Shown here in pieces: positions 10 to 33,267 of a DNA stretch of 35,306 nt. The translations under genes and the position numbers were made by a program. Origin of the DNA: Pancytospora philotis (taxonomy: Eukaryota; Microsporidia); assembly GCA_023647555.1 (NCBI GenBank), contig JALRLY010000247.1:5863-41168 (forward strand). Reading direction: 5' to 3'. The notes beneath the pieces are model-generated. The model had not been told where the DNA came from. It did no database searches and was given only the letters and a program-made list of their open reading frames with translations. The number at the start of each line of letters is the position of its first letter. The stretch's first letter is position 1.

Positions 10-67
10 CCAATCGCAATAGCCATCAGTTGAAACACTGCGATTCCCTCCTTTTTCAGCTATAAAA
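10..67 (+). promoter_or_regulatory. Promoter of histone H3: CCAAT, pyrimidine box, TATA
   Basis: CCAAT lies at 10-14, CCCTCCTTT at 46-54 and TATAAAA at 61-67, 28 bases before the ATG at 89. The pyrimidine box and TATA have the same 15-base offset as in front of the small basic gene at 8701. The string TCAGCTATAAA around this TATA recurs before the structured RNA at 17676. The short TATA-to-ATG distance implies a very short 5' leader. Confidence 0.6.
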
Positions 68-88
68 AGAAATATTTTCGGGACCCAT

Positions 89-10222: not shown

Positions 10223-10975
10223 TCACTTCCTGGTGCCGGTCGTCAGAACCTCGCGGATGGAGTTTCCCTCCATAAAGTCTTTCTTGCACAGCGGGCACAG
10301 CTTTTTGATGTTGATCCACTCGTCGATGCAGGCCGAGTGGAAGAGATGCCCGCACTTCAGCATCTTCACCACGTCCTCGCCCTGGAACTCGTCGCGGCAA
10401 ATGGAGCACTCGTGCGAGGCGCCCGACGCGAACGAGCCCGCGATCTCGCGCGCGGCATAGGTGGTCTCCTTGCAGGAGATGCTGGCGAACAGCTCGATGC
10501 ACACCAGGCTCGCGATGATGAATATCTCTACACACGGCACGAAGATGATGGCGAGCTCGACGGTTTTGCACATCTGCTCGAAATCGTCCGCAGCAACGGA
10601 GTCGATGTGGTGCCCGAGCAGGGAACCAAGGAACAGGCTGAGCACCACGAACTCGGTCAGCAGAAAGTTGAACTCGTTGCGGTACGTCTCCGCGGCGGGC
10701 TCCACGAAGCCGAGGTAGAAAAAGGAGATCACCGGCATGGAGCTTGCGCCGGTGCACATGCGGAGCAGCTTGCAGGCTATGACGATGGCATAGAGCATCA
10801 GGCCCTTGAATGCCCAGTGCTCGTGATAGGCGCGCTGGACATACAGGAAGTGCAGGAACAGCACCAGGCTGAACGCGGCGAAAGTGCCGTACAGCATCCT
10901 GAGGCCGCGGCTCTGGGATATTTTGCTGATGCGCCCTTTGAGTGTCTGGGAGTCCAGGAGGATTTCGCTGAGCAT
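10223..10975 (-). CDS. Membrane RING-H2 protein, divergent member
   Basis: A probable membrane-bound E3 ubiquitin ligase of 250 aa. The N-terminal two thirds contain four or five hydrophobic segments (for example FAAFSLVLFLHFLYV, FLLTEFVVLSLFLGSLL and LAIIFVPCVEIFIIASLVCI). The C-terminus carries a RING-H2 finger: CSIC, then CGHLFHSACIDEW, then CPLC. The layout matches the array that follows, but sequence similarity outside the RING is low and the fixed ATTGG/TATA-like promoter is not seen, so it is a distant relative or an independent ligase. Multi-spanning domain plus RING-H2 is also the layout of Hrd1; I cannot confirm that identity. The first ATG is at 10975. Confidence 0.82.
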   Translation of the reverse strand: MLSEILLDSQTLKGRISKISQSRGLRMLYGTFAAFSLVLFLHFLYVQRAYHEHWAFKGLMLYAIVIACKLLRMCTGASSMPVISFFYLGFVEPAAETYRNEFNFLLTEFVVLSLFLGSLLGHHIDSVAADDFEQMCKTVELAIIFVPCVEIFIIASLVCIELFASISCKETTYAAREIAGSFASGASHECSICRDEFQGEDVVKMLKCGHLFHSACIDEWINIKKLCPLCKKDFMEGNSIREVLTTGTRK

Positions 10976-11188
10976 GCCTTCGGATGAGGGCTCGCAATTC
11001 TGACAATTTGGCTCCTTTAGAATAAGGAGCGGACACGGCCAGAACGAGCCGTGCACTGCGCACGCAGGGGCCGATATGCTGTCCTTTCCAATCGTGCATG
11101 CCTGCGACTCGTTCACCGGGCCACGCACAGAAACTGTACCTATTGCGCACCGGGCGCATGCACGCTGCGGGTTAAGAGGTATCCGTCT

Positions 11189-11201
11189 ATAAACAGTTTA
11201 T
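11189..11201 (-). terminator. 13-bp palindrome with AATAAA, downstream of RING gene A
   Basis: ATAAACAGTTTAT is a perfect 6-1-6 palindrome. Read on the gene strand it gives AATAAACTGTTTAT, containing AATAAA about 55 bases past the stop. Identical copies lie behind three other family members. Confidence 0.5.
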
Positions 11202-11255
11202 TAATAGTAACACGAACCGCCGGGCATCGTCATTGGTTAAATCGACGCGTTGGTA

Positions 11256-12428
11256 TTAGAAGCGTTTTCTACACATAGGGCACGATTTTTGCTCGCAGAA
11301 CCATGCGCAAATACACCCAGTGTGGAAATGGTGGCGGCACGGCAGGAAGGCAACTTTGCCTCCCGGGATGTAGCCTTCGGAGCAGATCATGCACGTGGGG
11401 TTGCCGTCAGATACGTCGTCCTCGGACATGTAAGTAGCGACTGTGCAGTGCTGGAGCAACAGCTGCTCTTTGCGCAGCCGCTCCTGTTCCCGCAGCCTCA
11501 GCCGCTGTTGTAGCTGCTGCTCTCGCTGCTCCCGCCGCTGCTGCTGTTGCCGCTGCTCCTGTAGTCGCTGCTGCTCCTGCTCCTCCTGCGGCAGCTGCCG
11601 CCACAGCTGCCGCCGCTGCTGCTTTTGTAACAGCCGCTGCTGCCGCTGGTGCTCCTGCTCCCGGTGCCACTGCCGCTGCTCCTCCGGTGAGAGCTGGTGC
11701 CACTGGCGCCGCTGCTGGTAGCGCAGCCGCTCCTGCTCCCCCTGCTGCCAGCGCCGCTCCCACTCCTGCTCTCCCAGCAGCTGCCGCCGCCACCGTCCCA
11801 GATGCCACCGCCGCTGCAGCTCCTGCTGCTGGCGCTGCCAGCGCCGCTCCTGCTGTTGCTGCTGCATTAGTTCCCGCTGCCTCTCCGGCGGCAGCTGTTG
11901 CCAGATCCGCGGCAGCGACAGCTGCTCGGAGATGCGAGACCGCGACTCCACTAGCAGCGAAATAGTACACTCGATCGCCAGCGTCGCGATGAACGAGAAG
12001 AAGCCGAAGTGGACACAGTAAAGACTCGTGTTGTACAAAACTGTGCTCGTGTCCTCGCGCGTGTCGCACTGCTTGACCCAGTGTAAACCGACGATGCACC
12101 ACACGAGCATCATCGCTTTGATGTAGAAGTACAACTGAGCAATGCCCTCTTTCTCCTTATAATCCTGGATGCGATGGATCTGGAAGAACATGCGGGTCTT
12201 GAGGTATAACGAAATGGTTAGGGCGACATTGAGTACACAGTAAACGCCCAGAAATATCTTAAACGGCACCTTGACATTCGCATGGCGCTGCGTTTCGTGG
12301 ATGACACTGATGATAAGCACCTCCAGCGCGTTGAATACAAGCCTCAGAACAATCTGAGAGCGGACGCACGAGAGCGGGCTGATGCGGCTGCAAAAACTCT
12401 GGGTGCTCTGTGCTGGTCCGCCATCCAT
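11256..12428 (-). CDS. RING-H2 membrane protein A with Q/R/W-rich insert
   Basis: First of four tandem long-form members (390 aa). After a short N-terminus beginning MDGG it has four hydrophobic segments, then about 165 residues very rich in Gln, Arg, Glu and Trp, then SEDD and a RING-H2 finger (CMIC, CRHHFHTGC, CPMC). By analogy with membrane RING ligases, the insert and RING should face the cytosol and recruit an E2; substrates are unknown. The insert contains three copies of a W-x2-L-(P/S)-(P/Q)-E motif (IWQQLPPERQ, QWHQLSPEEQ, LWRQLPQEEQ). The ATG at 12428 is chosen over 12449 because M(D/N)GG is shared by members A-D and because a TATA-like GTTAAA lies 26 bases upstream. The C-terminus stops at CRKRF, shorter than in B-D. 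Confidence 0.85.
   Translation of the reverse strand: MDGGPAQSTQSFCSRISPLSCVRSQIVLRLVFNALEVLIISVIHETQRHANVKVPFKIFLGVYCVLNVALTISLYLKTRMFFQIHRIQDYKEKEGIAQLYFYIKAMMLVWCIVGLHWVKQCDTREDTSTVLYNTSLYCVHFGFFSFIATLAIECTISLLVESRSRISEQLSLPRIWQQLPPERQRELMQQQQQERRWQRQQQELQRRWHLGRWRRQLLGEQEWERRWQQGEQERLRYQQRRQWHQLSPEEQRQWHREQEHQRQQRLLQKQQRRQLWRQLPQEEQEQQRLQEQRQQQQRREQREQQLQQRLRLREQERLRKEQLLLQHCTVATYMSEDDVSDGNPTCMICSEGYIPGGKVAFLPCRHHFHTGCICAWFCEQKSCPMCRKRF
11445..11939 (-). repeat. Coding low-complexity insert of RING gene A
   Basis: Imperfect triplet-like DNA, mostly CTG/CCG/CTC on the plus strand, encodes the Gln/Arg/Glu/Trp-rich insert (about 165 residues). It is not a pure microsatellite: the W-x2-LPxE module recurs at irregular spacing, and reading-frame integrity is kept throughout. 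Confidence 0.7.
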
Positions 12429-12453
12429 TTTGCAGGGCTGCTGCGGCATTTAA

Positions 12454-12508
12454 CGAAAATCATGTGGACCAATTGAAATCTAAGCATTCAGTGACTAAAT
12501 TAAAGGAG
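12454..12508 (-). promoter_or_regulatory. Family promoter of RING gene A
   Basis: On the gene strand, AATTGG lies with its near edge 41 bases before the ATG (plus-strand CCAAT at 12469-12473), GTTAAA lies at -26, and CTCCTTTAATTT lies further out (12497-12508). The second ATTGG present 18-19 bases further upstream in other members is degenerate here. Confidence 0.55.
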
Positions 12509-12702
12509 ACGGCGCCAAGATCTACAGAGGAGCACTGCTGAAAATAGCTACATGGTCAGCCGTCTTGACAGCACGGACCGATCCCCGTCAGCGGGTAGAA
12601 GTTTCCGCTCGAGCGGAAAAAGAGCACCAGGAAAGAGGCGTGCTCATCGCGCGTTGTAAGCCTTTAAATAGCGGGGTTCTCCTATCACGTGACTACATTT
12701 CT
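12509..12702. other. Spacer with sequence repeated before gene C
   Basis: The stretch from about 12630 to 12702 (AAAGAGGCGTGCTCATCG, CGCGTTGTAAGC, CTCCTATCACGTG) recurs almost unchanged at about 14205-14285. It marks the edge of a segmental duplication. No gene was recognised. Confidence 0.5.
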
Positions 12703-12715
12703 ATAAACAGTTTAT
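12703..12715 (-). terminator. 13-bp palindrome with AATAAA, downstream of RING gene B
   Basis: ATAAACAGTTTAT, identical to the copies behind members A, C and E, 44 bases past the stop of gene B. It provides AATAAA on the gene strand. Confidence 0.5.
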
Positions 12716-12758
12716 TATTATAGTGGCATAGGCCGTCAAATTATACCCTTGTCTGAAT

Positions 12759-13934
12759 CTATGGGCTGGTATCCAGAACAATACGTTTTCTGCACAGCGG
12801 GCACGATTTTTGTACACGGAGCCACATGCAGATGCATCCAGCATGGAAATTGTGGTGGCACGGGAGTAAGGCGATTTCATCTCCTGGAATGTAGCCATCG
12901 GAGCAAATGCTGCACATGCAGTTACCATTAAAGATATCGTCCTCGGACAAGTAGGAGACGGTTGTAAATTGCTGGAGCCACCGCCGCTCCTCCTGGTGCT
13001 GCTCTTCCCGCTGCTGTTGCCGCAGTCGCTGCCTCTGCTGCAACTGTAACTGCCGCTGTTCTAGCCGCTGCCGCAGTTGCTCCTGTTCTAGTTGTCGCTG
13101 CCGCTCCTGCTCCTCCTGCGGCAACATCCGCCACAGCTGCCGCCGCTGCTGTTGTTGCAGCTGCCTATGCAGCCGCCTTTGCTCCTGCTCCCGGTGCTGC
13201 TGACGCTGCTCCCCCGGTGAAAGCTGGTGCCATTGTTGTTGCCGCTGGTAACGTTGCCGCCCCTGCTCCGCCTGCCGCTGCCGCCGCCCCCATTCCTGCT
13301 CTCCCAGCCGCCTCCTCCGCCAGTCTATTTGATGCTGGCGCCACGCTAGTTCCTGCTCTCGCTGCCGCTGCTCCCATTCTCGCCGCCGCTGCAGTTCCTG
13401 CCGTATCTGCCGCTCTTGCCTCCACCGCCGGAAACCAGCGATCCAGTACTGCACTAGCAACACCAGCACTACCATGGCGCCGATAATCGGTAGTGCGCAG
13501 AAAGAGAATAGCTCAAACATGATACAGTATACGCTTGTGTAGTACAGAAGCGAGCTTGCCTCCTTACGCGCGCCGTGCTTCTCGGCCCAATGGTAACCGA
13601 CCATGCACCATACAAGCATCACTACATCGAGGGTCCGGTATTTAATCGACACGTCGTCCTCATCACAATCCTTGATGCAATGAATCTGGAAGAATATGCG
13701 GCTCCTGAGGTAGAGTGAAATAGTCTGGGCAATATTTAGCACGCAGTACACAGCCAGAAAAAGTTTGTACGGCGCATCGAGCTTCACATGGCGCTGTGCT
13801 TCGAGGACGGCACCGGCACTCACCGCTACCAGCACGTTGGCTATGAGCTTCAGTACTATCAGGGCGCGAATGCAAGCGAGCGCATTGATGCGGCCGAGGA
13901 ATCCCCGGGAGCTCTGTGCTGATCCTCCATCCAT
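12759..13934 (-). CDS. RING-H2 membrane protein B with Q/R/W-rich insert
   Basis: Long-form member, 391 aa, closest to gene C: the membrane domain and the RING with its tail RKRIVLD are almost the same in both. Hydrophobic segments include ALIVLKLIANVLVAVSAGAV, LFLAVYCVLNIAQTISLYL, VVMLVWCMVGYHW and a long fourth one (LFSFCALPIIGAMVVLVLLV). The insert covers residues 169-321 and has two clear W-x2-LxPxE modules (QWHQLSPGEQ, LWRMLPQEEQ), fewer than in C. RING-H2: CSIC, CHHNFHAGC, CPLC. The ATG at 13934 begins MDGG and has ATTGG at -41 and ATTGAA at -27. An upstream in-frame extension to 14021 would run through the promoter. Confidence 0.85.
   Translation of the reverse strand: MDGGSAQSSRGFLGRINALACIRALIVLKLIANVLVAVSAGAVLEAQRHVKLDAPYKLFLAVYCVLNIAQTISLYLRSRIFFQIHCIKDCDEDDVSIKYRTLDVVMLVWCMVGYHWAEKHGARKEASSLLYYTSVYCIMFELFSFCALPIIGAMVVLVLLVQYWIAGFRRWRQERQIRQELQRRREWEQRQREQELAWRQHQIDWRRRRLGEQEWGRRQRQAEQGRQRYQRQQQWHQLSPGEQRQQHREQEQRRLHRQLQQQQRRQLWRMLPQEEQERQRQLEQEQLRQRLEQRQLQLQQRQRLRQQQREEQHQEERRWLQQFTTVSYLSEDDIFNGNCMCSICSDGYIPGDEIALLPCHHNFHAGCICMWLRVQKSCPLCRKRIVLDTSP
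12972..13430 (-). repeat. Coding low-complexity insert of RING gene B
   Basis: About 153 residues of Gln/Arg/Glu with periodic Trp, encoded by imperfect CTG/CCG-type triplets. It is shorter than the insert of its near-duplicate C by about 60 residues, although the flanking domains are almost identical. Confidence 0.7.
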
Positions 13935-13954
13935 CCTGCTGGGCTGGGCGCAGC

Positions 13955-14013
13955 GTTCAATGGAAATGCCGTGGCCAATTGGACTCAGCCATCCAATGAC
14001 CATATTAAAGGGG
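13955..14013 (-). promoter_or_regulatory. Family promoter of RING gene B, paired ATTGG
   Basis: Plus-strand CCAAT at 13975-13979 and 13993-13997 (18 bases apart) reads as paired ATTGG upstream of the gene. A TATA-like ATTGAA lies at -27, and CCCCTTTAATAT lies beyond (around 14002-14013). Confidence 0.6.
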
Positions 14014-14285
14014 CGGCGCAATAGATCTGCTTGCGGAAATCACCAAGAATGGCTATGATGCGTATATCGCCGGATACCTGGCACGTAAACAGCCGTGGCT
14101 ACATGCTCTCCGCGGCAAGGTGATCGACCGTTTGGCGCAGCACCGACAGTGCAGGCACATCTCCATCCCGCGAGCTGCAGCTTTCGTCTCTAAGCAAAAA
14201 TGGGGCACCGGTAAAAGAGGCGTGCTCATCGGCGCGTTGTAAGCTTTTGCATGGTGAATCTCTCCTATCACGTGGCTACAGCTCT
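14014..14285. other. Spacer, part of the B/C duplication
   Basis: About 14014-14110 matches the region upstream of gene C (AGATCTGCTTGCGGA; ATACCTGGCACGTAAACAGCCGTGG against ATGCCTGGCACGTAAACAGCCGTGG). About 14205-14285 matches the region behind gene B. A small minus-strand ORF here has no support. Confidence 0.5.
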
Positions 14286-14298
14286 ATAAACAGTTTAT
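14286..14298 (-). terminator. 13-bp palindrome with AATAAA, downstream of RING gene C
   Basis: ATAAACAGTTTAT 41 bases past the stop of gene C, inside a longer stretch shared with the 3' flank of gene B. Confidence 0.5.
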
Positions 14299-14338
14299 TA
14301 TAGTGGCATGGGCCGTCAAATTATACCCTTGTCTGAAT

Positions 14339-15694
14339 CTATGGGCTGGCATCCAGAACGATACGTTTTCTGCACAGCGGGCACGATTTCTGTACACGAA
14401 GCCACATGCAGATGCATCCAGTGTGGAAATTGTGGTTGCACGGGAGTAAGACGACTCCTTCCCCTGGAATGTAGCCATCGGAGCAGATGCTGCACATGCA
14501 GCTACCGTCAGGGATGTCGTCCTCGGACAGATAGGTAATGACTGTTAGATGCTGGAGCCACCACTGCTCCTGCCGCTGTCGCATCTCCCGCTGTTGCTGT
14601 TCCCATAGCTCCTGCCGCTGCTGCTGTCGTATTAGCTGCCTCTGCTGCCGCCGCTGATTCTGCTGTTGCTGTCTTTGCTCCTGCTGTTGCAACACCTGCT
14701 GCCGTCGCTGCTGCTCCTGCTCCTCCTGCGGCAAGTGTCGCCACAGCAACTCTCGTTGGCGCTGCTGCAGCATTTCCTGCTGCCGCTGGCGCTCCTGCTC
14801 CCGGTGCCACTGGCGCAGCCCCTCCGGCGATAGCTGGCGCCACTGCTGCCGTCGCTGATTCCGCTGCCGTTGCCGTTCCCCTTGCTGCCACCGCCGCTCC
14901 CACTGCTCCCGCCACAGCAGTTGTCGCTGGTGTTGCTGTAGCAGCCGCTGTTGATGTTTTTGATCCCGCTGCTCGCGCTGCAGCTCTTGTTGCAGCTGCT
15001 CCTGGCGTCGCTGCAGCTCTCGCTCTTCCTGGGGTAAATGCCGCCACAGCAGCCGCCGCTGCTGCTTTTGCAACTCCAGTTGCTCCCGTTTATGCTGTTC
15101 CTGCCTCTGTTCCTGCTCCCGCTGCCGCTGCTCGCACTCCCGCTGCCGCTGCAGCGCATGCCGTATCTGCCGCTCTTGCAACCACCGCCGGAAATCAGAG
15201 ATCCAATACTGCACTAGCCAGAATAACAGTACCATGGCAGCGATAACCGGCAGCGCACAAAACGAGAATAGCTCAAACATGATACAGTATATGCTTGTGT
15301 AGTACAGGAGCGAGCTTCTTTCCTTACACTTGCCGTCATCCCCGGCCCATTGGTAACCTATTACACACCATAATATCATCACCACATCGAGGGCCCGGTA
15401 TTTCATCGATACGTCTTTCTCATGATAATCCTTGATGCAATGTATCTGGAAGAATATGCGGTTTCTAAAGTAGAGCGAAATAGTCTCTGCGATATTTAGC
15501 ACACAGTACACAGCCAGAAAAAGTTTGTACGGCGCATTGAGCTTCACATGGCGCTGTGCTTCGAGGACGGCGCCGGCGCTCACCGCTACCAGCACGTTGG
15601 CTATGAGCTTCAGCACTATCAGGGCGCGGATGCACGCGAGCAGATTGATGCGGCCGAGAAAGCCCCGGGAGCTCTGTGCTGATCCCCCATTCAT
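14339..15694 (-). CDS. RING-H2 membrane protein C, longest insert
   Basis: The longest member, 451 aa. Its four hydrophobic segments and RING (CSIC, CNHNFHTGC, CPLC, then RKRIVLDASP) are close to gene B. The insert spans residues 169-381 (about 213 aa). It contains three W-R-x-L-(P/S)-x-E modules (LLWRHLPQEER, QWRQLSPEGL, LLWRHLPQEEQ) plus a fourth partial one (LLWREQWERRW), consistent with internal duplication. The insert should form long charged helices, probably coiled coil, between membrane and RING. The ATG at 15694 (MNGG) has ATTGG at -41 and a weak TATA-like ACTGAA at -27. The open frame continues to 15853, but that part overlaps the promoter and has no counterpart in other members. 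Confidence 0.85.
   Translation of the reverse strand: MNGGSAQSSRGFLGRINLLACIRALIVLKLIANVLVAVSAGAVLEAQRHVKLNAPYKLFLAVYCVLNIAETISLYFRNRIFFQIHCIKDYHEKDVSMKYRALDVVMILWCVIGYQWAGDDGKCKERSSLLYYTSIYCIMFELFSFCALPVIAAMVLLFWLVQYWISDFRRWLQERQIRHALQRQRECEQRQREQEQRQEQHKREQLELQKQQRRLLWRHLPQEERELQRRQEQLQQELQREQRDQKHQQRLLQQHQRQLLWREQWERRWQQGERQRQRNQRRQQWRQLSPEGLRQWHREQERQRQQEMLQQRQRELLWRHLPQEEQEQQRRQQVLQQQEQRQQQQNQRRQQRQLIRQQQRQELWEQQQREMRQRQEQWWLQHLTVITYLSEDDIPDGSCMCSICSDGYIPGEGVVLLPCNHNFHTGCICMWLRVQKSCPLCRKRIVLDASP
14552..15190 (-). repeat. Coding low-complexity insert of RING gene C
   Basis: About 213 codons of Gln/Arg/Glu/Trp-rich sequence, including two near-identical LLWRHLPQEE units at roughly 15023-15055 and 14723-14755. 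Frame is preserved across the whole stretch. Confidence 0.7.
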
Positions 15695-15714
15695 TCTGCT
15701 GGGCTGGGCGCAGC

Positions 15715-15774
15715 GTTCAGTGGAAATGTCGTGTCCAATTAGAACGCATGCACCCAATGACCAAATTAAAGGAG
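15715..15774 (-). promoter_or_regulatory. Family promoter of RING gene C, paired ATTGG
   Basis: Plus-strand CCAAT at 15735-15739 and 15754-15758 (19 bases apart), near edge 41 bases from the ATG. ACTGAA lies at -27, and CTCCTTTAATTT at 15763-15774. Confidence 0.6.
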
Positions 15775-16010
15775 GCGGCGCTATAGATCTGCTTGCGGAT
15801 ATCGCCAGATGCCTGGCACGTAAACAGCCGTGGCCATGTGCGGCTTTTTCCATGCCTAAGCGTGGGAAAATATCAAGGAGTAAGACTTATCCACCGGCAC
15901 CCGCGTTGTTAAACTGTAATCTGCAAGTCTTCTTTCCTGTCCTGCGCGCCCATTTCTATGAACAATTTATTAATGGCGGCACGGCCGCCGAACTGCATCC
16001 TCGTTTGAAA
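15775..16010. other. Spacer between RING genes C and D
   Basis: The part next to gene C repeats the gene B upstream flank (AGATCTGCTTGCGGA, CCTGGCACGTAAACAGCCGTGG). Near 15956-15970 a degenerate copy of the downstream palindrome (ATGAACAATTTAT) precedes the end of gene D and supplies AATAAA on its strand. Confidence 0.45.
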
Positions 16011-17147
16011 CTACGTGTCGGTATCTAGAACAATACGTTTTCTGCACAGAGGGCACGATATCTTCACATGGAGCCACACCCTGACGCATCCGGCGTGGAA
16101 ATGATGATGGCACGGGAGGAAGGCGACTTCATCCCCCGGGGTGTAGTCATCGAAACAAATCATACACGCGTGGTAACCGCCGGGGACGTCGTCTTCGGTT
16201 AAGTAGGTAATGATCGTAAGCTGCTGGAGCAACTGCTGCACCTGCTGCTGCCGCTCCAGCTCACACCGCTGTTGCTGGTCCAGCTGCTCCCTTTGCCGCT
16301 GTCGCTCTTGCTCCTCCTGCGGCAACTGCTGCCACAGCCGCCGCCGCTGCTGCCTTTGCAACTCCCGCTGCTGCCGCTGGCGCTCCTGCTCCCGGTGTAA
16401 CTGCTGCTGCTCTTCTGGTGGCAGCCGGTGCCACTGCTGCCGTCGCCGGCGCCGTTCCCGCTCCTGCTCACCCTGCAGCTGTCTCCTCCCCCATTCTTGC
16501 TCTCCCAGCCGCTGCCGTCGTTCTAGTCGCTGCCGCTGCCGCCACTCTAGTTCCCGCTGCTGCTGCCGCCGTTCCAACTCCAGCAGCTGTGACCTCGGCG
16601 ACGTCTCTAGCCACGCCTGGGCCTGTCGCTCGCGCTGCGGGCACCCGGAGACCAGAAATTGCCACAGCACCGGCAGCAGTATGATGGTGCTGATCGCCAC
16701 CGGTGCGATGAACGAGGAGGCCCCGGATATAATACAGTATAGGCACGTGTAGTACAAAAGTGGATTCGTGTCTTTGCACCTACCGCGTTCCTCGACCCAA
16801 ATGAAGCCGAGCAAGTACAGGAGGAGCGACCCCGTCTCAAGCCAGAAATTAATTCTCCGCACGTTACTGCCCTCTTCGTAGTGCTCGATGTAAGAGATCT
16901 CGGAGAATTTGCGCCTCTTAAGGTAGAGCATCATGGTCTGGGCGATAGTCAGCATACAGTACATGCGAAGAAAAACGGCCAGAGGTCTCTCGGCCTTTAC
17001 ATAGCCCTGTGCTCCGTGGATGGCGCCGATGCTTACCAACATCAGCACGTTGAATATTAACTTGAACATTATTAGGGTGCGGGCGCACGATAGTGCGTCG
17101 ATGCGGTGGAAAAAGCTCTGGCTGTTGTGCGCCAGCCCTCCATTCAT
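16011..17147 (-). CDS. RING-H2 membrane protein D with Q/R/W-rich insert
   Basis: Long-form member of 378 aa and the most divergent of A-D in the membrane part (LIMFKLIFNVLMLVSIGAIH, VFLRMYCMLTIAQTMMLYL, LLLYLLGFIWV, SSFIAPVAISTIILLPVLW). The insert covers residues 171-309 and has two W-x2-LPxEE modules (QWHRLPPEEQ, LWQQLPQEEQ). The acidic linker reads TEDD rather than SEDD, and the RING-H2 is CMICFDDYTPG, CHHHFHAGC, CPLC. The segment NPLLYYT before the fourth hydrophobic stretch is shared with the short members E and G, so D bridges the two subfamilies. The ATG at 17147 begins MNGG and has ATTGG at -43. Confidence 0.85.
   Translation of the reverse strand: MNGGLAHNSQSFFHRIDALSCARTLIMFKLIFNVLMLVSIGAIHGAQGYVKAERPLAVFLRMYCMLTIAQTMMLYLKRRKFSEISYIEHYEEGSNVRRINFWLETGSLLLYLLGFIWVEERGRCKDTNPLLYYTCLYCIISGASSFIAPVAISTIILLPVLWQFLVSGCPQRERQAQAWLETSPRSQLLELERRQQQRELEWRQRQRLERRQRLGEQEWGRRQLQGEQERERRRRRQQWHRLPPEEQQQLHREQERQRQQRELQRQQRRRLWQQLPQEEQERQRQREQLDQQQRCELERQQQVQQLLQQLTIITYLTEDDVPGGYHACMICFDDYTPGDEVAFLPCHHHFHAGCVRVWLHVKISCPLCRKRIVLDTDT
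16221..16637 (-). repeat. Coding low-complexity insert of RING gene D
   Basis: About 139 codons, Gln/Arg/Glu-rich with spaced Trp, the shortest of the four inserts. The order of the two LPxEE modules and the HREQERQRQQRELQ segment between them match genes A and C. Confidence 0.7.
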
Positions 17148-17167
17148 TCTGTCGGGCTGCGCGCGGC

Positions 17168-17243
17168 GCATAACGAAAAGTGCCATGGACCAATTGAAAC
17201 TTGAGCACCCAATGGCGCGCTGCTAGTGGCCAATTTAAAGGAG
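17168..17243 (-). promoter_or_regulatory. Family promoter of RING gene D, paired ATTGG
   Basis: Plus-strand CCAAT at 17190-17194 and 17209-17213 (19 bases apart), with a third at 17230-17234 (21 bases on). The near edge is 43 bases from the ATG. GTTATG lies at -27, and CTCCTTTAAATT spans 17232-17243. Confidence 0.6.
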
Positions 17244-17596
17244 AGGAAGGCGGAGCAGAGCTGAGCATGGATATTGCTAGAAATGGCGATATTGCATTCA
17301 TGCCGGGCACATGGCACGCAAGGCATGTTGATTCACGCAAGTTAATTTGGTAGTGCTGCACGCCCGTGGAAGTTCCTTGTTTAAGCCACTGTGACACTCG
17401 TGCTGTGTTTTTGCATTTAGAACCAAACTCAACTCGAATCCGTGTATTGCATAGTGCTTGCCTCTGCTCGGCCGCGGTCGGATAAATTTTTCACGCAGCC
17501 CGTATGCGGTAACGACGAGCAAACGGTAAAATGCTAGTAGAACTGTGAAATAAGCTAGTACAATCTATTTGACAGTAATATAAGCAGATAGTGCTG
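17244..17596. other. Intergenic between the RING array and the RNA locus
   Basis: AT-richer spacer between divergent units. The first 100 bases faintly repeat the flank seen upstream of B and C (ATATTGC, CCGGGCACATGGCACGCAAG). No gene, tRNA or stable hairpin chain was recognised. Confidence 0.4.
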
Positions 17597-17656
17597 ATTG
17601 GCCGATTCTAAAACCTGATCGTGAGGCGTTTCTTTTTAAAACCTCAGCTATAAATA
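17597..17656 (+). promoter_or_regulatory. Promoter of the putative structured RNA
   Basis: ATTGG at 17597-17601 and TATAAATA at 17649-17656, then AGAAAAAATTT. TCAGCTATAAA is identical to the core promoter of histone H3. The TATA lies 27 bases before the first hairpin, the same offset that separates TATA from ATG in the protein genes. Confidence 0.5.
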
Positions 17657-17675
17657 GAAAAAATTTGTTTTGCCC

Positions 17676-18600
17676 CGGGGTCGCGCCCGACCCCGAAGAC
17701 GAATGCCACGCCTGCCACGACGCACGGCGAGAATGGGCGGGACCGCGCTCCATCTCTCAGCTTCACAAACCCAGCACCGAGCTGGTCAGGTACCTGCGTC
17801 CGCCGCATGCCTGCATAAGGTTCCCGAAACCTCGCGACAGCAGCCCTCCGAGGGCCTGTCTTGGCAGAGATAATCCGTTTATCCTGCAGGGCTGACAGAT
17901 TGGATTTCCCCGTTGCCATCTGTCTGGGGCCCGCATCGTGCGTGGACCGCGAGCCCAGTGCGCCGCATCCCCAGTGTACGCCGCTCCGCGCGGCTGCCAG
18001 CCAACCCGGTGCTACGCGATCAGCACCGAAGACCGCTCCGTGCGGTAAGCCCAGTCGTAAACTGGCAGAGCACTCGCCACTGAGGCAGTGCAGAAAGAAA
18101 TCTACGAACGATTTCTAGTGGACGCCGATACGTACAAGGCGGTCCAAGCAGCGATGATCCGCTCATCCTGCCCTGGGGTTGATGACCTTCCCCAGTAGCT
18201 GCTCTGGGATTCGATTGCACACGACCATTGATGCTGCACACCCAGAGCACGTCGCTTAAAGCGACTTAAACCCAGTCTTCAGCGACTGGTGTATCCCAGG
18301 TGGTTTACATCTGCGAGTGAGCCATTGAGCCCCGCACCCCTGGAGCGAGCATCGCCTCGCATGCCCTGCCCGATCGTTTAACGCAATTCAACGACTGCTA
18401 ACCAGCTGATTGCACGACAGCAGCGGCGCCTCCGCGCATTCACTGCGCGCGCCAAGCACCTCATCGCCTGAGGCCCGCACTTATCGGGTGCGCAGCCTGT
18501 AGATCGCTACTGTCTACGGCGCGTATGCTTCTCTGATGCTTATTGAAGGAGTTACTTTCAAGGAAGGTCGGCTTGCCTGGCTTTGCGTTGTGTAACTCAT
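17676..18600 (+). ncRNA. Putative ~0.9-kb hairpin-dense structured RNA
   Basis: No convincing protein is encoded, but perfect inverted repeats follow one another along nearly the whole stretch. Examples: 17676-17695 (8 bp, 4-base loop), 17836-17860 (5+5 bp with a two-base bulge), 17894-17924 (7 bp), 18007-18028 (7 bp), 18032-18046, 18051-18065, 18078-18090, 18096-18116 (7 bp), 18153-18167, 18173-18195 (6 bp), 18251-18265, 18272-18289 (6 bp), 18374-18394, 18425-18453 (5+5 bp), 18459-18473, 18476-18492 and 18549-18598 (7 bp enclosing the last segment). A TATA box sits 27 bases before the first stem; AATAAA (18604) and TTTT (18628) follow the last. I could not match it to rRNA, SRP RNA, RNase P/MRP or a spliceosomal RNA. 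Telomerase RNA would suit the length, but no convincing template was found. Strand is taken from the promoter. Confidence 0.6.
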
Positions 18601-18794
18601 TTCAATAAATATTCTAAGTCTATTACATTTTCTGTTGATTATCAAATTGCTTGCCAGCCAGGTTAAGTTCCGGACTGTGGTATTTGAATAACATAGACTT
18701 GCGTGGATCGCAATTTATTACTTTTGACGCTTATTAGAATGCTATTTCAGAAGTTTGCATTGTATCGTATCGTTTACAGCTCCTACCCTTGCAC

Positions 18795-18814
18795 AGCCTG
18801 AGGCGTCCCAGGCT
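18795..18814 (-). terminator. Hairpin just past the TRM5 stop codon
   Basis: AGCCTG and CAGGCT form a 6-bp stem with an 8-base loop, seven bases beyond the end of the TRM5 coding region. It could mark the mRNA 3' end or be an outlying part of the neighbouring structured RNA. Confidence 0.3.
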
Positions 18815-26535: not shown

Positions 26536-27309
26536 ATGCTGCAGTCGATACCGCTTAGGAACAAGCCGCTGTGCATCGCTGTGCGCGGAACGACCGCGTA
26601 CATCGGGGACGCCCGCGGAAACATATACACGGTCGAGCATCCGTACACGCACCCCAGGGTGCTGCGCTCGAATAGCAGCCCGGTATCGAGCATCGTCTTC
26701 GCGGATCAGCTGATATACGGCGACTGGGACGGAACGGTGCACACGGAGAACGCCTCGCGGCGGCTCGGCCGGGACATGGTAAAGGCCATGGCCGTTTTCG
26801 ACGGGCGCCTCTTCGTCTCGGTCGACCGCAAGCTCTTCGTGCTCGGGCTCGATCTGGCGGTGCTGGAGGAGCACGACACCCCCGCCAAGATCTACTCTAT
26901 GGACGTGCACGGCGGCGCGGTGCACTTCGGTATGGCCAGGGGCCTCGTGGCGAGCTACTGCGGTGGCTACCATGCGCCGGTCGACTCGGGGCGCGACGGC
27001 GACATCATTTCGCTGCGCAGCGGATGCGCCGGCTCCACGCGCGGCGAGCTCTGCGCGGGCGGGCGCGTGCTTTACTCCTCCGACAAATGGATACGCTCTG
27101 TCTGGGACGAGAGCCTTTTCGCGGCCGGGCCGTGCGTGCTGCAGCACGGAAATGTCCTGCACAGCCACGCGGACGATGTTGTGGGCGTGGCGAGGATAGA
27201 TGACGCAGTTATTTCTATCGGGCTTGACTGCTGCTACAAGGTCCACATCGCGACGCCGATGCTCAGCGAGAACGAGGAGAAGGAGCTAATGGACTTGTTA
27301 AATTCATAA
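26536..27309 (+). CDS. Beta-propeller (WD40-like) protein
   Basis: A 257-aa protein built from successive short beta-blade-like units: PLCIAVRGTTAYIGDARGNIYTVE, SSIVFADQLIYGDWDGTVHTE, AMAVFDGRLFVSVDRKLFVLGL, YSMDVHGGAVHFGMARGLVASY, and further blades to VVGVARIDDAVISIGLDCCYKVH. GH and WD dipeptides are mostly degenerate, as in shortened microsporidial propellers. It could be a subunit of a ribosome-biogenesis or chromatin complex; no specific family is recognised. The ATG at 26536 follows CAAGATTTT (26512-26520), a one-mismatch version of the promoter box. An in-frame ATG at 26458 would add 26 residues. Confidence 0.7.
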   Translation: MLQSIPLRNKPLCIAVRGTTAYIGDARGNIYTVEHPYTHPRVLRSNSSPVSSIVFADQLIYGDWDGTVHTENASRRLGRDMVKAMAVFDGRLFVSVDRKLFVLGLDLAVLEEHDTPAKIYSMDVHGGAVHFGMARGLVASYCGGYHAPVDSGRDGDIISLRSGCAGSTRGELCAGGRVLYSSDKWIRSVWDESLFAAGPCVLQHGNVLHSHADDVVGVARIDDAVISIGLDCCYKVHIATPMLSENEEKELMDLLNS

Positions 27310-32523: not shown

Positions 32524-33267
32524 TCACACCTCTCCCTCGTTGTCATCGACAAGCTCATACAGCAGGTTGATGTGCTTTTTACACAGCGGGCACGAGTCTT
32601 TGACGTTGAACCACTCGTCGATGCACTCAGCATGGAAATGGTGGTCGCACGGGAGGAACTTGACCTTGACGCCCGGGACGTAGTCGTCGAAGCAGATCGT
32701 GCATGTGTAGTTCCCGTCGGGGATGTCGTCCTCGGACGAATAGGCAATGACCTTCAGCTTCGGCCGCACGTAGTTCACGAGCAACAGAAGCAGGATGATG
32801 GCCAGCAGCGGCGCGATGAAAGAGAAGAACCCGAATAAGATCCAATAGTAGCTCATGTAGTACAGGAGCGGGTTGGTGACTCTGCACACGTCGCACTCTT
32901 GGACCCAGTGGAAGCCGATGATGTACCAGAAGAGCATCACCGCTTCGAGGCAGTTGTTCACCAGCGTCACGTCGCCGTTCTCCTCATAATCGGGGATGCG
33001 GTGGATCCTGAAGAACGCGCGGTTCTTAAGATAGAACGCGATGGCCTTGGCGACATTCAGTATGCAGTACACTCCCAGAAAGACCTTCAGCGGCGCTTCA
33101 ACCTTTTCGTGGCGCTTGATATAGAGGGTGACACTGATGCTTGCCACTTTCAGCACTTTGACCACGAGCTCCAGCATTACCAGGAAGCGGACGCACGAGA
33201 GCGCGTTTACGCGGCTGAAGTAGCGTCGGAAGCTCTGGGCTGACTCCACACTCACCTCGCTGTCCAT
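32524..33267 (-). CDS. RING-H2 membrane protein E, short form
   Basis: A 247-aa member without the Q/R/W insert. Hydrophobic segments at about 24-49, 60-80, 106-122 and 135-166 are followed directly by RPKLKVIAYSSEDDIPDG and a complete RING-H2 (189-229: CTIC, CDHHFHAEC, CPLC). It ends with an acidic helix (LLYELVDDNEGEV) also found in gene F but not in the long forms. It probably represents the ancestral layout to which the insert was added, or from which it was lost. The start at 33267 is supported by ATTAAA at -27 and ATTGG at -43, the same geometry as in the long forms. Confidence 0.88.
   Translation of the reverse strand: MDSEVSVESAQSFRRYFSRVNALSCVRFLVMLELVVKVLKVASISVTLYIKRHEKVEAPLKVFLGVYCILNVAKAIAFYLKNRAFFRIHRIPDYEENGDVTLVNNCLEAVMLFWYIIGFHWVQECDVCRVTNPLLYYMSYYWILFGFFSFIAPLLAIILLLLLVNYVRPKLKVIAYSSEDDIPDGNYTCTICFDDYVPGVKVKFLPCDHHFHAECIDEWFNVKDSCPLCKKHINLLYELVDDNEGEV

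What the first reader, a model, noticed from the sequence alone, without database searches (positions are those of the whole stretch)
17676..18600. Hairpin-dense 0.9-kb locus: a candidate undescribed structured RNA
Seen directly: more than fifteen perfect inverted repeats with 5-8 bp arms and mostly short loops follow one another, several as two stacked helices (17836-17860, 18425-18453), and the last 50 bases are closed by a 7-bp helix (18549-18598). No comparable chain was found elsewhere in the window. A TATA box identical in context to that of histone H3 lies 27 bases before the first stem. No plausible protein is encoded. Known long structured RNAs (rRNA, SRP, RNase P/MRP, snRNA) were not matched by eye. 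Telomerase RNA is a candidate by size only.
Basis: partly seen in the sequence, partly recalled or inferred. Interest (0 to 1): 0.8.

Follow-up and report, generated by a model that had tools for sequence, protein, structure and literature searches.

The report
Hairpin-chain RNA with repeated CCG loops
In the genome of a microsporidian parasite, a 0.93-kb stretch without detectable protein code holds about twenty short hairpins, and eight hairpins there share a CCG-centred five-base loop on differing stems; it is predicted to be transcribed into an undescribed RNA that would likely act as a multi-site docking scaffold for a loop-binding protein.

Summary
With pairs limited to 70 nt, 17676-18600 (+) is more stable than all 300 dinucleotide shuffles (z -5.70; minus strand -2.51). 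It has 19 perfect hairpins, the most of 1,186 tiles. All six frames score like intergenic DNA; no Rfam family fits.

New here: eight hairpins share an NCCGN pentaloop on differing stems, in one orientation; at most 4 hairpins share a loop triplet in 2,000 shuffles, at most 3 in 1,176 other tiles. Five follow each other every 23-27 nt. Two pairs of look-alike hairpins each differ by one compensatory pair change, and no difference breaks a pair. TATA, AAATTT and CCCC, a microsporidian gene start, lead into the first hairpin; AATAAA ends the locus. It fills a 1,634-bp gap; the 26 other gaps between my ORF models are at most 391 bp.

Telomerase RNA is not supported: telomeres are TTAG and no template word of 6 nt or more exists. 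RNase P RNA and a weak SRP hit lie elsewhere.

Best reading: an undescribed noncoding RNA gene; multivalent protein docking is inferred. Transcription and conservation are untested.

The parts
17649..17654 (+). TATA box (TATAAA) within TCAGCTATAAATAGAA
   Evidence: Sequence. TCAGCTATAAAWA occurs only twice in the 3.68-Mb genome, here and before the histone H3 gene of the same window.
17661..17676 (+). microsporidian gene-start signal AAATTT-GTTTTG-CCCC, ending on the first base of the first hairpin
   Evidence: Signal described in PMC2803860 (passages). In 200 kb of this genome 33 of 41 AAATTT-N1-9-CCC sites have an ATG within 60 nt that opens 80 aa or more. In the window, 4 of the 6 sites other than this one open an ORF of 159-246 aa.
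17676..18600 (+). proposed noncoding RNA gene body: chain of hairpins
   Evidence: z -5.70, 0 of 300 shuffles as stable; 19 hairpins, top of 1,186 tiles; no coding signal
17676..17695 (+). 5'-terminal 8-bp hairpin CGGGGTCG[CGCC]CGACCCCG
   Evidence: mean pair probability 0.98
17771..17785 (+). NCCGN hairpin 1, loop ACCGA
17795..17807 (+). NCCGN hairpin 2, loop UCCGC, 4-bp stem (inside a bulged longer hairpin)
17818..17832 (+). NCCGN hairpin 3, loop CCCGA
17843..17855 (+). NCCGN hairpin 4, loop UCCGA (U-A is predicted to pair, leaving a CCG triloop), on an outer GACAG/CTGTC helix
17864..17887 (+). NCCGN hairpin 5, GCAG-A-GATAA[UCCGU]TTATC-CTGC
17980..17994 (+). NCCGN hairpin 6, loop UCCGC
   Evidence: not in the minimum-energy folds, which pair this stretch otherwise
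18032..18046 (+). NCCGN hairpin 7, loop UCCGU; look-alike of hairpin 6 with G-C to A-U at the outer pair
18148..18171 (+). NCCGN hairpin 8, GCAG-C-GATGA[UCCGC]TCATC-CTGC; look-alike of hairpin 5 with A-U to G-C inside the stem
18540..18608 (+). 3'-terminal long hairpin, outer arms TTATTGAA/TTCAATAA and inner arms GAGTTAC/GTAACTC
18604..18609 (+). AATAAA, likely polyadenylation signal
   Evidence: Sequence. AATAAA or ATTAAA lies within 100 nt after 14 of 27 ORF models of the window; the chance rate was not computed.

Best explanation
The locus is a candidate noncoding RNA gene of a microsporidian, predicted to be transcribed by RNA polymerase II from a TATA/AAATTT/CCCC start to an AATAAA signal, whose roughly 0.93-kb RNA is predicted to fold into a chain of short hairpins and would likely act as a multivalent scaffold or sponge, each of its eight NCCGN loops holding one copy of a loop-binding protein. 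Shown directly: the inverted repeats, the shared loop in one orientation, the compensatory differences between look-alike copies, the absence of coding signal, and the start and end words in the DNA. Inferred: transcription, the strand, function as RNA, and multivalent protein docking. The partner protein and the biological role are not identified.
For: Structure: + strand z -5.70 (pair span 70 nt), 0 of 300 shuffles as stable, against -2.51 on the other strand; highest hairpin count of 1,186 tiles. Recurrent loop: 8 of 25 NCCGN words on the + strand sit in a pentaloop with a stem of 4 bp or more, against 31 of 4,888 in 234 kb of the same genome; 8 of the locus's 14 pentaloop hairpins are CCG, against 31 of 1,268 (p 3e-12 and 3e-10, post hoc). 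Allowing every loop size 3-8, triplet and place in the loop, shuffles reach at most 4 (2,000 shuffles) and other tiles at most 3 (1,176 tiles, the 10 tiles that touch the locus left out). All 8 loops read CCG and none CGG on the + strand. Five consecutive loops start at 17776, 17799, 17823, 17847 and 17874. Pairing kept: look-alikes 17864/18148 differ at 4 of 24 positions (one bulge base, one loop base, two partners, A-U to G-C); 17980/18032 differ at 3 of 15 (one loop base, two partners, G-C to A-U). Gene signals: TATA, AAATTT and CCCC abut the first hairpin; 33 of 41 such AAATTT-CCC sites in 200 kb start ORFs, median 2 nt before the ATG, while here the first ATG is 27 nt on and opens 56 aa with non-coding codon usage (-0.57). 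Gap of 1,634 bp; the other 26 gaps between 28 ORF models are at most 391 bp.
Against: No transcript data and no related species' DNA could be read, so neither expression nor conservation is shown. A DNA search of its genome found no second copy. The energy excess lies mostly in 18001-18375; the 5' part with the run of CCG hairpins scores only +0.1 to -1.5 in 150-nt windows. With arms of 6 bp or more the hairpin count only ties with other tiles. A model of the 8 hairpins also rates one unrelated place of the window (27015-27029, minus) at 17.2 bits, above 6 of the 8, so a single such hairpin is not distinctive, only the cluster. The pair counts over the 8 hairpins are circular, because they were chosen for having stems. 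The look-alike pairs are short two-copy repeats, of which one (13 nt) could be chance. Hairpin 6 is not in the best folds. Of the 6 other AAATTT-CCC sites in the window 2 open no ORF either. A shared loop shows a common constraint or origin, not protein binding.
Confidence: 0.5

Rival explanations
1. Structured noncoding RNA whose function rests on its global fold (ribozyme-like or ribonucleoprotein core), the NCCGN hairpins being stable caps or tertiary-contact loops rather than protein docking sites.
For: Large stable fold; other hairpins with different loops and a long 3'-terminal hairpin.
Against: Limiting pairs to 70 nt costs little energy (-342 against -377 kcal/mol for the 925 nt), so the fold is a chain rather than one core; no Rfam family or ribozyme matched.
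Confidence: 0.25
2. DNA-level feature: an old tandem array of short palindromes (duplicated hairpin units) kept or spread by recombination or replication, with no functional RNA.
For: Look-alike units and the regular 23-27-nt pitch of five hairpins point to duplication.
Against: Strand asymmetry of folding; promoter and AATAAA words at its ends; compensatory rather than pair-breaking differences; no second copy in the genome and no other cluster in 234 kb.
Confidence: 0.12
3. Telomerase RNA.
For: A telomerase RNA-binding domain lies in a 930-aa open frame of the genome, so a template RNA is needed; size fits; two 5-nt words of the template sense, CTAAC (18398, in a predicted loop) and TAACT (18593).
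Against: Telomere repeat is TTAG, found at two contig ends; no CTAA-series word of 6 nt or more on either strand of 17640-18640; 2.4 such 5-mers are expected on one strand by composition.
Confidence: 0.04
4. Protein-coding gene (spliced, frameshifted or decayed).
For: A gene-start signal and a 56-aa ORF on +; a 156-aa open frame on -.
Against: Codon scores -0.38 to -0.67 in all six frames against +0.07 to +0.80 for 21 window genes, which were also the training set; no relatives of the 156-aa frame at E 0.001. The 56-aa ORF was not searched and splice sites were not modelled.
Confidence: 0.03

Closest known systems
Csr/Rsm sponge RNAs of bacteria (CsrB, RsmZ)
   Same: One noncoding RNA that binds several copies of a protein and titrates it (CsrB binding multiple CsrA dimers: PMC5027483, start of abstract in search listing); many small hairpins repeating a loop motif (recalled).
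   Different: Bacterial; motif GGA (start of abstract of PMC4894983), which none of the NCCGN loops has on the + strand; no CsrA is expected in a microsporidian (recalled, not searched); here 0.93 kb, TATA and AATAAA words, CCG loops.
Nucleolin recognition element (stem-loop with UCCCGA loop; recalled; one paper seen in listing only)
   Same: Hairpin with a C-rich loop ending CCG(A); hairpin 3 reads U-CCCGA-A.
   Different: The other seven loops have CC, not CCC, before the G; loops are 5 nt; binding not tested.
Smaug/Vts1 recognition hairpins (CNGGN pentaloop; recalled)
   Same: Short stem with a pentaloop read by a protein.
   Different: CNGG is not present in the eight loops on the + strand.
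Large ornate bacterial RNAs (OLE, GOLLD, ROOL; recalled)
   Same: Long, highly structured, noncoding, function not obvious from sequence.
   Different: Eukaryotic genome; chain of small hairpins; no Rfam match.
Microsporidian lncRNAs of Nosema/Vairimorpha (PMC13276322, PMC13359526; listing and abstract starts)
   Same: Noncoding transcripts in microsporidia.
   Different: Those were found as transcripts; here a structure-defined locus without transcript data. Not compared in sequence.

Membership tests
Any Rfam family | score at or above the gathering threshold | tested here: not met
   0 matches in the window; the lax search of 17400-18800 gave 3 chance-level hits, E 1.5-4.5
Telomerase RNA | template of well over one telomere repeat | tested here: not met
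   TTAG telomeres; no word of 6 nt or more of the CTAA series on either strand; a bare 5-nt template cannot be excluded
Nuclear RNase P RNA | match to RF00009 at this locus | tested here: not met
   the genome's only match lies on contig C57, 85.1 bits
SRP RNA | match to RF00017 at this locus | tested here: not met
   the only hit, 47.1 bits and below the cut-off of 70, is on contig C72; such sub-threshold hits also ring in 5 of 14 control genomes
Csr/Rsm-type sponge RNA | several hairpins with one shared loop motif | tested here: met
   8 NCCGN hairpins
Csr/Rsm-type sponge RNA | GGA in the loops | tested here: not met
   loops are NCCGN on the + strand; GGA would occur only on the opposite strand
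Csr/Rsm-type sponge RNA | binds several copies of one protein | not testable with these tools
   needs a pull-down
Polymerase II noncoding RNA gene of microsporidia | gene-start signal AAATTT + CCC and 3' AATAAA | tested here: met
Polymerase II noncoding RNA gene of microsporidia | no protein code | tested here: met
   codon usage of all six frames; 156-aa frame without relatives
Polymerase II noncoding RNA gene of microsporidia | a stable transcript | not testable with these tools
   no RNA data held
Conserved structural RNA | covariation across species | not tested
   no DNA of relatives could be reached; only two within-locus look-alike pairs show compensatory differences

The most novel reading that the evidence does not exclude
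A eukaryotic counterpart of the bacterial CsrB principle: a strongly promoted 0.93-kb microsporidian RNA that displays at least eight NCCGN loops as a docking array and so controls the free amount of a loop-reading protein in the parasite, an RNA class with no described relative.
Probability: 0.25. Interest if true: 0.85.

Novelty: new variant of a known kind. Interest (0 to 1): 0.62.

Why it matters
Microsporidia have some of the most reduced eukaryotic genomes (general knowledge). Between 28 ORF models of this window the other 26 gaps are at most 391 bp, so 0.93 kb kept for an RNA would have to earn its place. A chain of hairpins with one repeated loop is the design of a protein-titrating or scaffolding RNA, known best from bacteria. 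It gives a ready test: find the protein that reads NCCGN hairpins. If that holds, it would be a new RNA-based regulator in a parasite lineage whose regulation is poorly known.

Tried and rejected
Telomerase RNA: own telomere repeat found, no template word of 6 nt or more. TTAGGG telomeres: none. RNase P, SRP: elsewhere, the SRP hit below its cut-off. tRNAs in the window: none. Coding gene. Dicer precursor: stems of 5-8 bp are far too short (recalled requirement). Dispersed mobile hairpin: NCCGN hairpins are no commoner than other pentaloop hairpins in 234 kb outside the locus, and no other cluster of 3 within 900 nt was found there on either strand. Relatives by DNA: a search of viral contigs with TRM5 found none. 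A degenerate pattern of hairpins 5/8 gave 1 viral and 21 prokaryote stretches; on inspection 16 of the 22 are one repeated stretch, mostly of Lachnospiraceae, with imperfect stems; 1 of 22 (L054) forms the NCCGN hairpin at the match; none has more than one NCCGN hairpin within 900 nt. I read them as unrelated. Covariance model of the 8 hairpins on the window: finds them and also one unrelated place at 17.2 bits, so single hits are not informative. Anticodon-arm mimicry (U33-CCG-N37 of tRNA-Arg, with TRM5 next door; recalled) was considered; the base after CCG is never G and 2 of 8 loops lack the U, so it was left as an idea. A paper search for hairpin arrays with pentaloops found no paper, which says little. 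Searches on microsporidian noncoding or telomerase RNA listed no such locus; only listings were seen, and for only the top 20 of 669 and 12 of 667.

Full report
What it lies in. The window is part of contig C58 of a 3.68-Mb, 83-contig genome. Its TRM5 protein is closest to microsporidian ones; among the named hits the best is Pancytospora epiphaga at 52% identity, with Glugoides intestinalis at 45% and Enteropsectra breve at 43% (two unnamed hits, 61% and 57%, are closer). Pancytospora and Enteropsectra belong to the Enterocytozoonida clade (PMC10393165, section 6 and passages seen). The species itself is not identified. Other gene names of the window (histone H3, RING genes) are read by eye.

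The observation. The hairpin density is real. Perfect hairpins (arm 5 or more, loop 3-12) number 22 against 7.48 +/- 2.25 in 200 dinucleotide shuffles, maximum 14. With arms of 6 or 7 or more the locus only ties with other tiles, so the excess is one of 5-bp stems. With loops of 3-8 there are 19, the most of 1,186 tiles over the window and 200 kb of the same genome; the best place outside the locus has 14. The + strand folds at z -4.47 (20 shuffles) or -5.70 with pairs limited to 70 nt (300 shuffles, none as stable). The - strand gives -2.21 and -2.51. Sixteen same-length controls (8 places, both strands, 40 shuffles each) gave -3.05 to +2.27. In 150-nt windows the + strand mean is -1.65 over 11 locus windows against +0.04 over 453 others (- strand: -0.76 against -0.07), but only 4 of the 11 are below -2, all in 18001-18375.

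The recurrent loop. Listing the hairpins showed the same loop again and again. Eight hairpins with stems of 4 bp or more have the pentaloop NCCGN: ACCGA, UCCGC, CCCGA, UCCGA, UCCGU, UCCGC, UCCGU, UCCGC. Of 25 NCCGN words in the locus 8 are such loops; elsewhere 31 of 4,888. Of 14 pentaloop hairpins in the locus 8 are CCG; elsewhere 31 of 1,268 (probabilities, post hoc). The fair test allows any loop size 3-8, any triplet and any place in the loop: the locus reaches 8, 2,000 shuffles reach at most 4, and 1,176 other tiles at most 3 (the 10 tiles touching the locus left out). All eight carry CCG on the + strand and none CGG. The first five loops start 23, 24, 24 and 27 nt apart; the others are in hairpins at 17980, 18032 and 18153. 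The cluster is what stands out: a covariance model of the eight rates one unrelated place of the window above six of them.

Compensatory differences. Two pairs of hairpins look like copies. 17864-17887 and 18148-18171 agree at 20 of 24 positions; the four differences are the bulge base, the last loop base, and two that pair with each other (A-U to G-C). 17980-17994 and 18032-18046 agree at 12 of 15; the differences are one loop base and two partners (G-C to A-U). No difference breaks a pair. This suggests duplication with pairing kept; the shorter pair could be a chance likeness. The formal count over all eight (95% of cells paired, all five pairs changed on both sides) is circular, since the eight were chosen for having stems.

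Gene signals. A known microsporidian gene start is AAATTT followed by CCC just before the ATG (PMC2803860, passages). In 200 kb of this genome 33 of 41 such sites have an ATG opening 80 aa or more, 30 of them 0-6 nt downstream; in the window 4 of the 6 sites other than this one do. The locus has TATAAA (17649), AAATTT (17661) and CCCC (17673-17676), the last C being the first base of the 8-bp first hairpin, and no such ORF: the first ATG, 27 nt after the CCC, opens 56 aa. The 13-mer TCAGCTATAAAWA occurs in the genome only here and before histone H3. At the other end AATAAA (18604-18609) overlaps the 3' arm of the long terminal hairpin; AATAAA or ATTAAA follows 14 of 27 ORF models within 100 nt. 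All six frames have codon scores of -0.38 to -0.67, within the range of six intergenic controls (-0.26 to -0.99); the 21 window genes used, also the training set, score +0.07 to +0.80. The 156-aa minus frame has no relative at E 0.001 among 283 candidates. The gap between the flanking genes is 1,634 bp; the other 26 gaps between 28 ORF models (up to 33267; the last 2 kb of the window not counted) are 11-391 bp.

What it is not. No Rfam family matches. RNase P RNA is on C57 and a sub-threshold SRP hit on C72. A telomerase RNA-binding domain in a 930-aa frame exists on C61, and the telomere repeat is TTAG, at ends of C63 and C78, as reported for Microsporidia sp. MB and Glugoides intestinalis (PMC13174016, passages). 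The locus has no word of 6 nt or more of the CTAA series on either strand, and two 5-mers on + where 2.4 are expected. Telomerase RNA is thus not supported, though a bare 5-nt template is not excluded.

Mechanism. The chain is local: limiting pairs to 70 nt keeps -342 of -377 kcal/mol. Differing stems with one conserved, same-orientation loop are what repeated protein sites look like, as in bacterial CsrB (PMC5027483, abstract start), though here the loop is CCG and not GGA. The most likely role is therefore a multivalent scaffold or sponge RNA. Shown: inverted repeats, loop recurrence, compensatory differences, gene-signal words, lack of code. Inferred: transcription, strand and docking. Unknown: partner and role.

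Limits. No relative's DNA could be reached, no RNA data are held, and only 234 kb outside the locus, of 3.68 Mb, was scanned for similar arrays, although a DNA search of the whole genome found no second copy.

Noticed in passing
contigs C63 (3-26) and C78 (16032-16157), loci L024-L033: Telomere repeat of this microsporidian is the short TTAG; a telomerase RNA-binding domain in a 930-aa open frame lies on C61 (L023). The telomerase RNA remains to be found.
   Followed up: partly
window 17645-17659 and the H3 promoter near window 57-71: The 15-mer CAGCTATAAAWAGAA occurs only twice in the genome, before histone H3 and before the hairpin locus, 17.6 kb apart; possible shared regulation.
   Followed up: partly
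window 17676-18600: CCCAGT occurs 5 times (0.29 expected) and CCCAG 8 times (1.74 expected); CGGA never occurs while TCCG occurs 7 times.
   Followed up: no
L006 7384 (+), L003 556 (-), L009 4140 (-): Orphan AAATTT-CCC gene-start words without a following ORF of 80 aa and in no open frame over 100 aa; L006 has 9 hairpins in the next 925 nt. Rfam finds nothing at them. Possible further noncoding genes.
   Followed up: partly
window 10223-17186 and 32524-33267: Array of RING-finger-like genes (read by eye), several with long glutamine/arginine-rich stretches; three of them (RING3, RING4, RING6) share AATAAACTGTTTATAG after the stop.
   Followed up: no
window 17484-17501 (+): A second AAATTT-CCC word without ORF upstream of the locus; the 17200-17640 stretch has no excess structure (z +0.75).
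   Followed up: no
window 18398-18402: Predicted pentaloop CTAAC equals one and a quarter telomere repeats (CTAA); probably chance.
   Followed up: partly
window 27015-27029 (-): One isolated NCCGN-type hairpin scoring 17.2 bits with the hairpin model, inside the WD-repeat-like gene region; probably chance.
   Followed up: no
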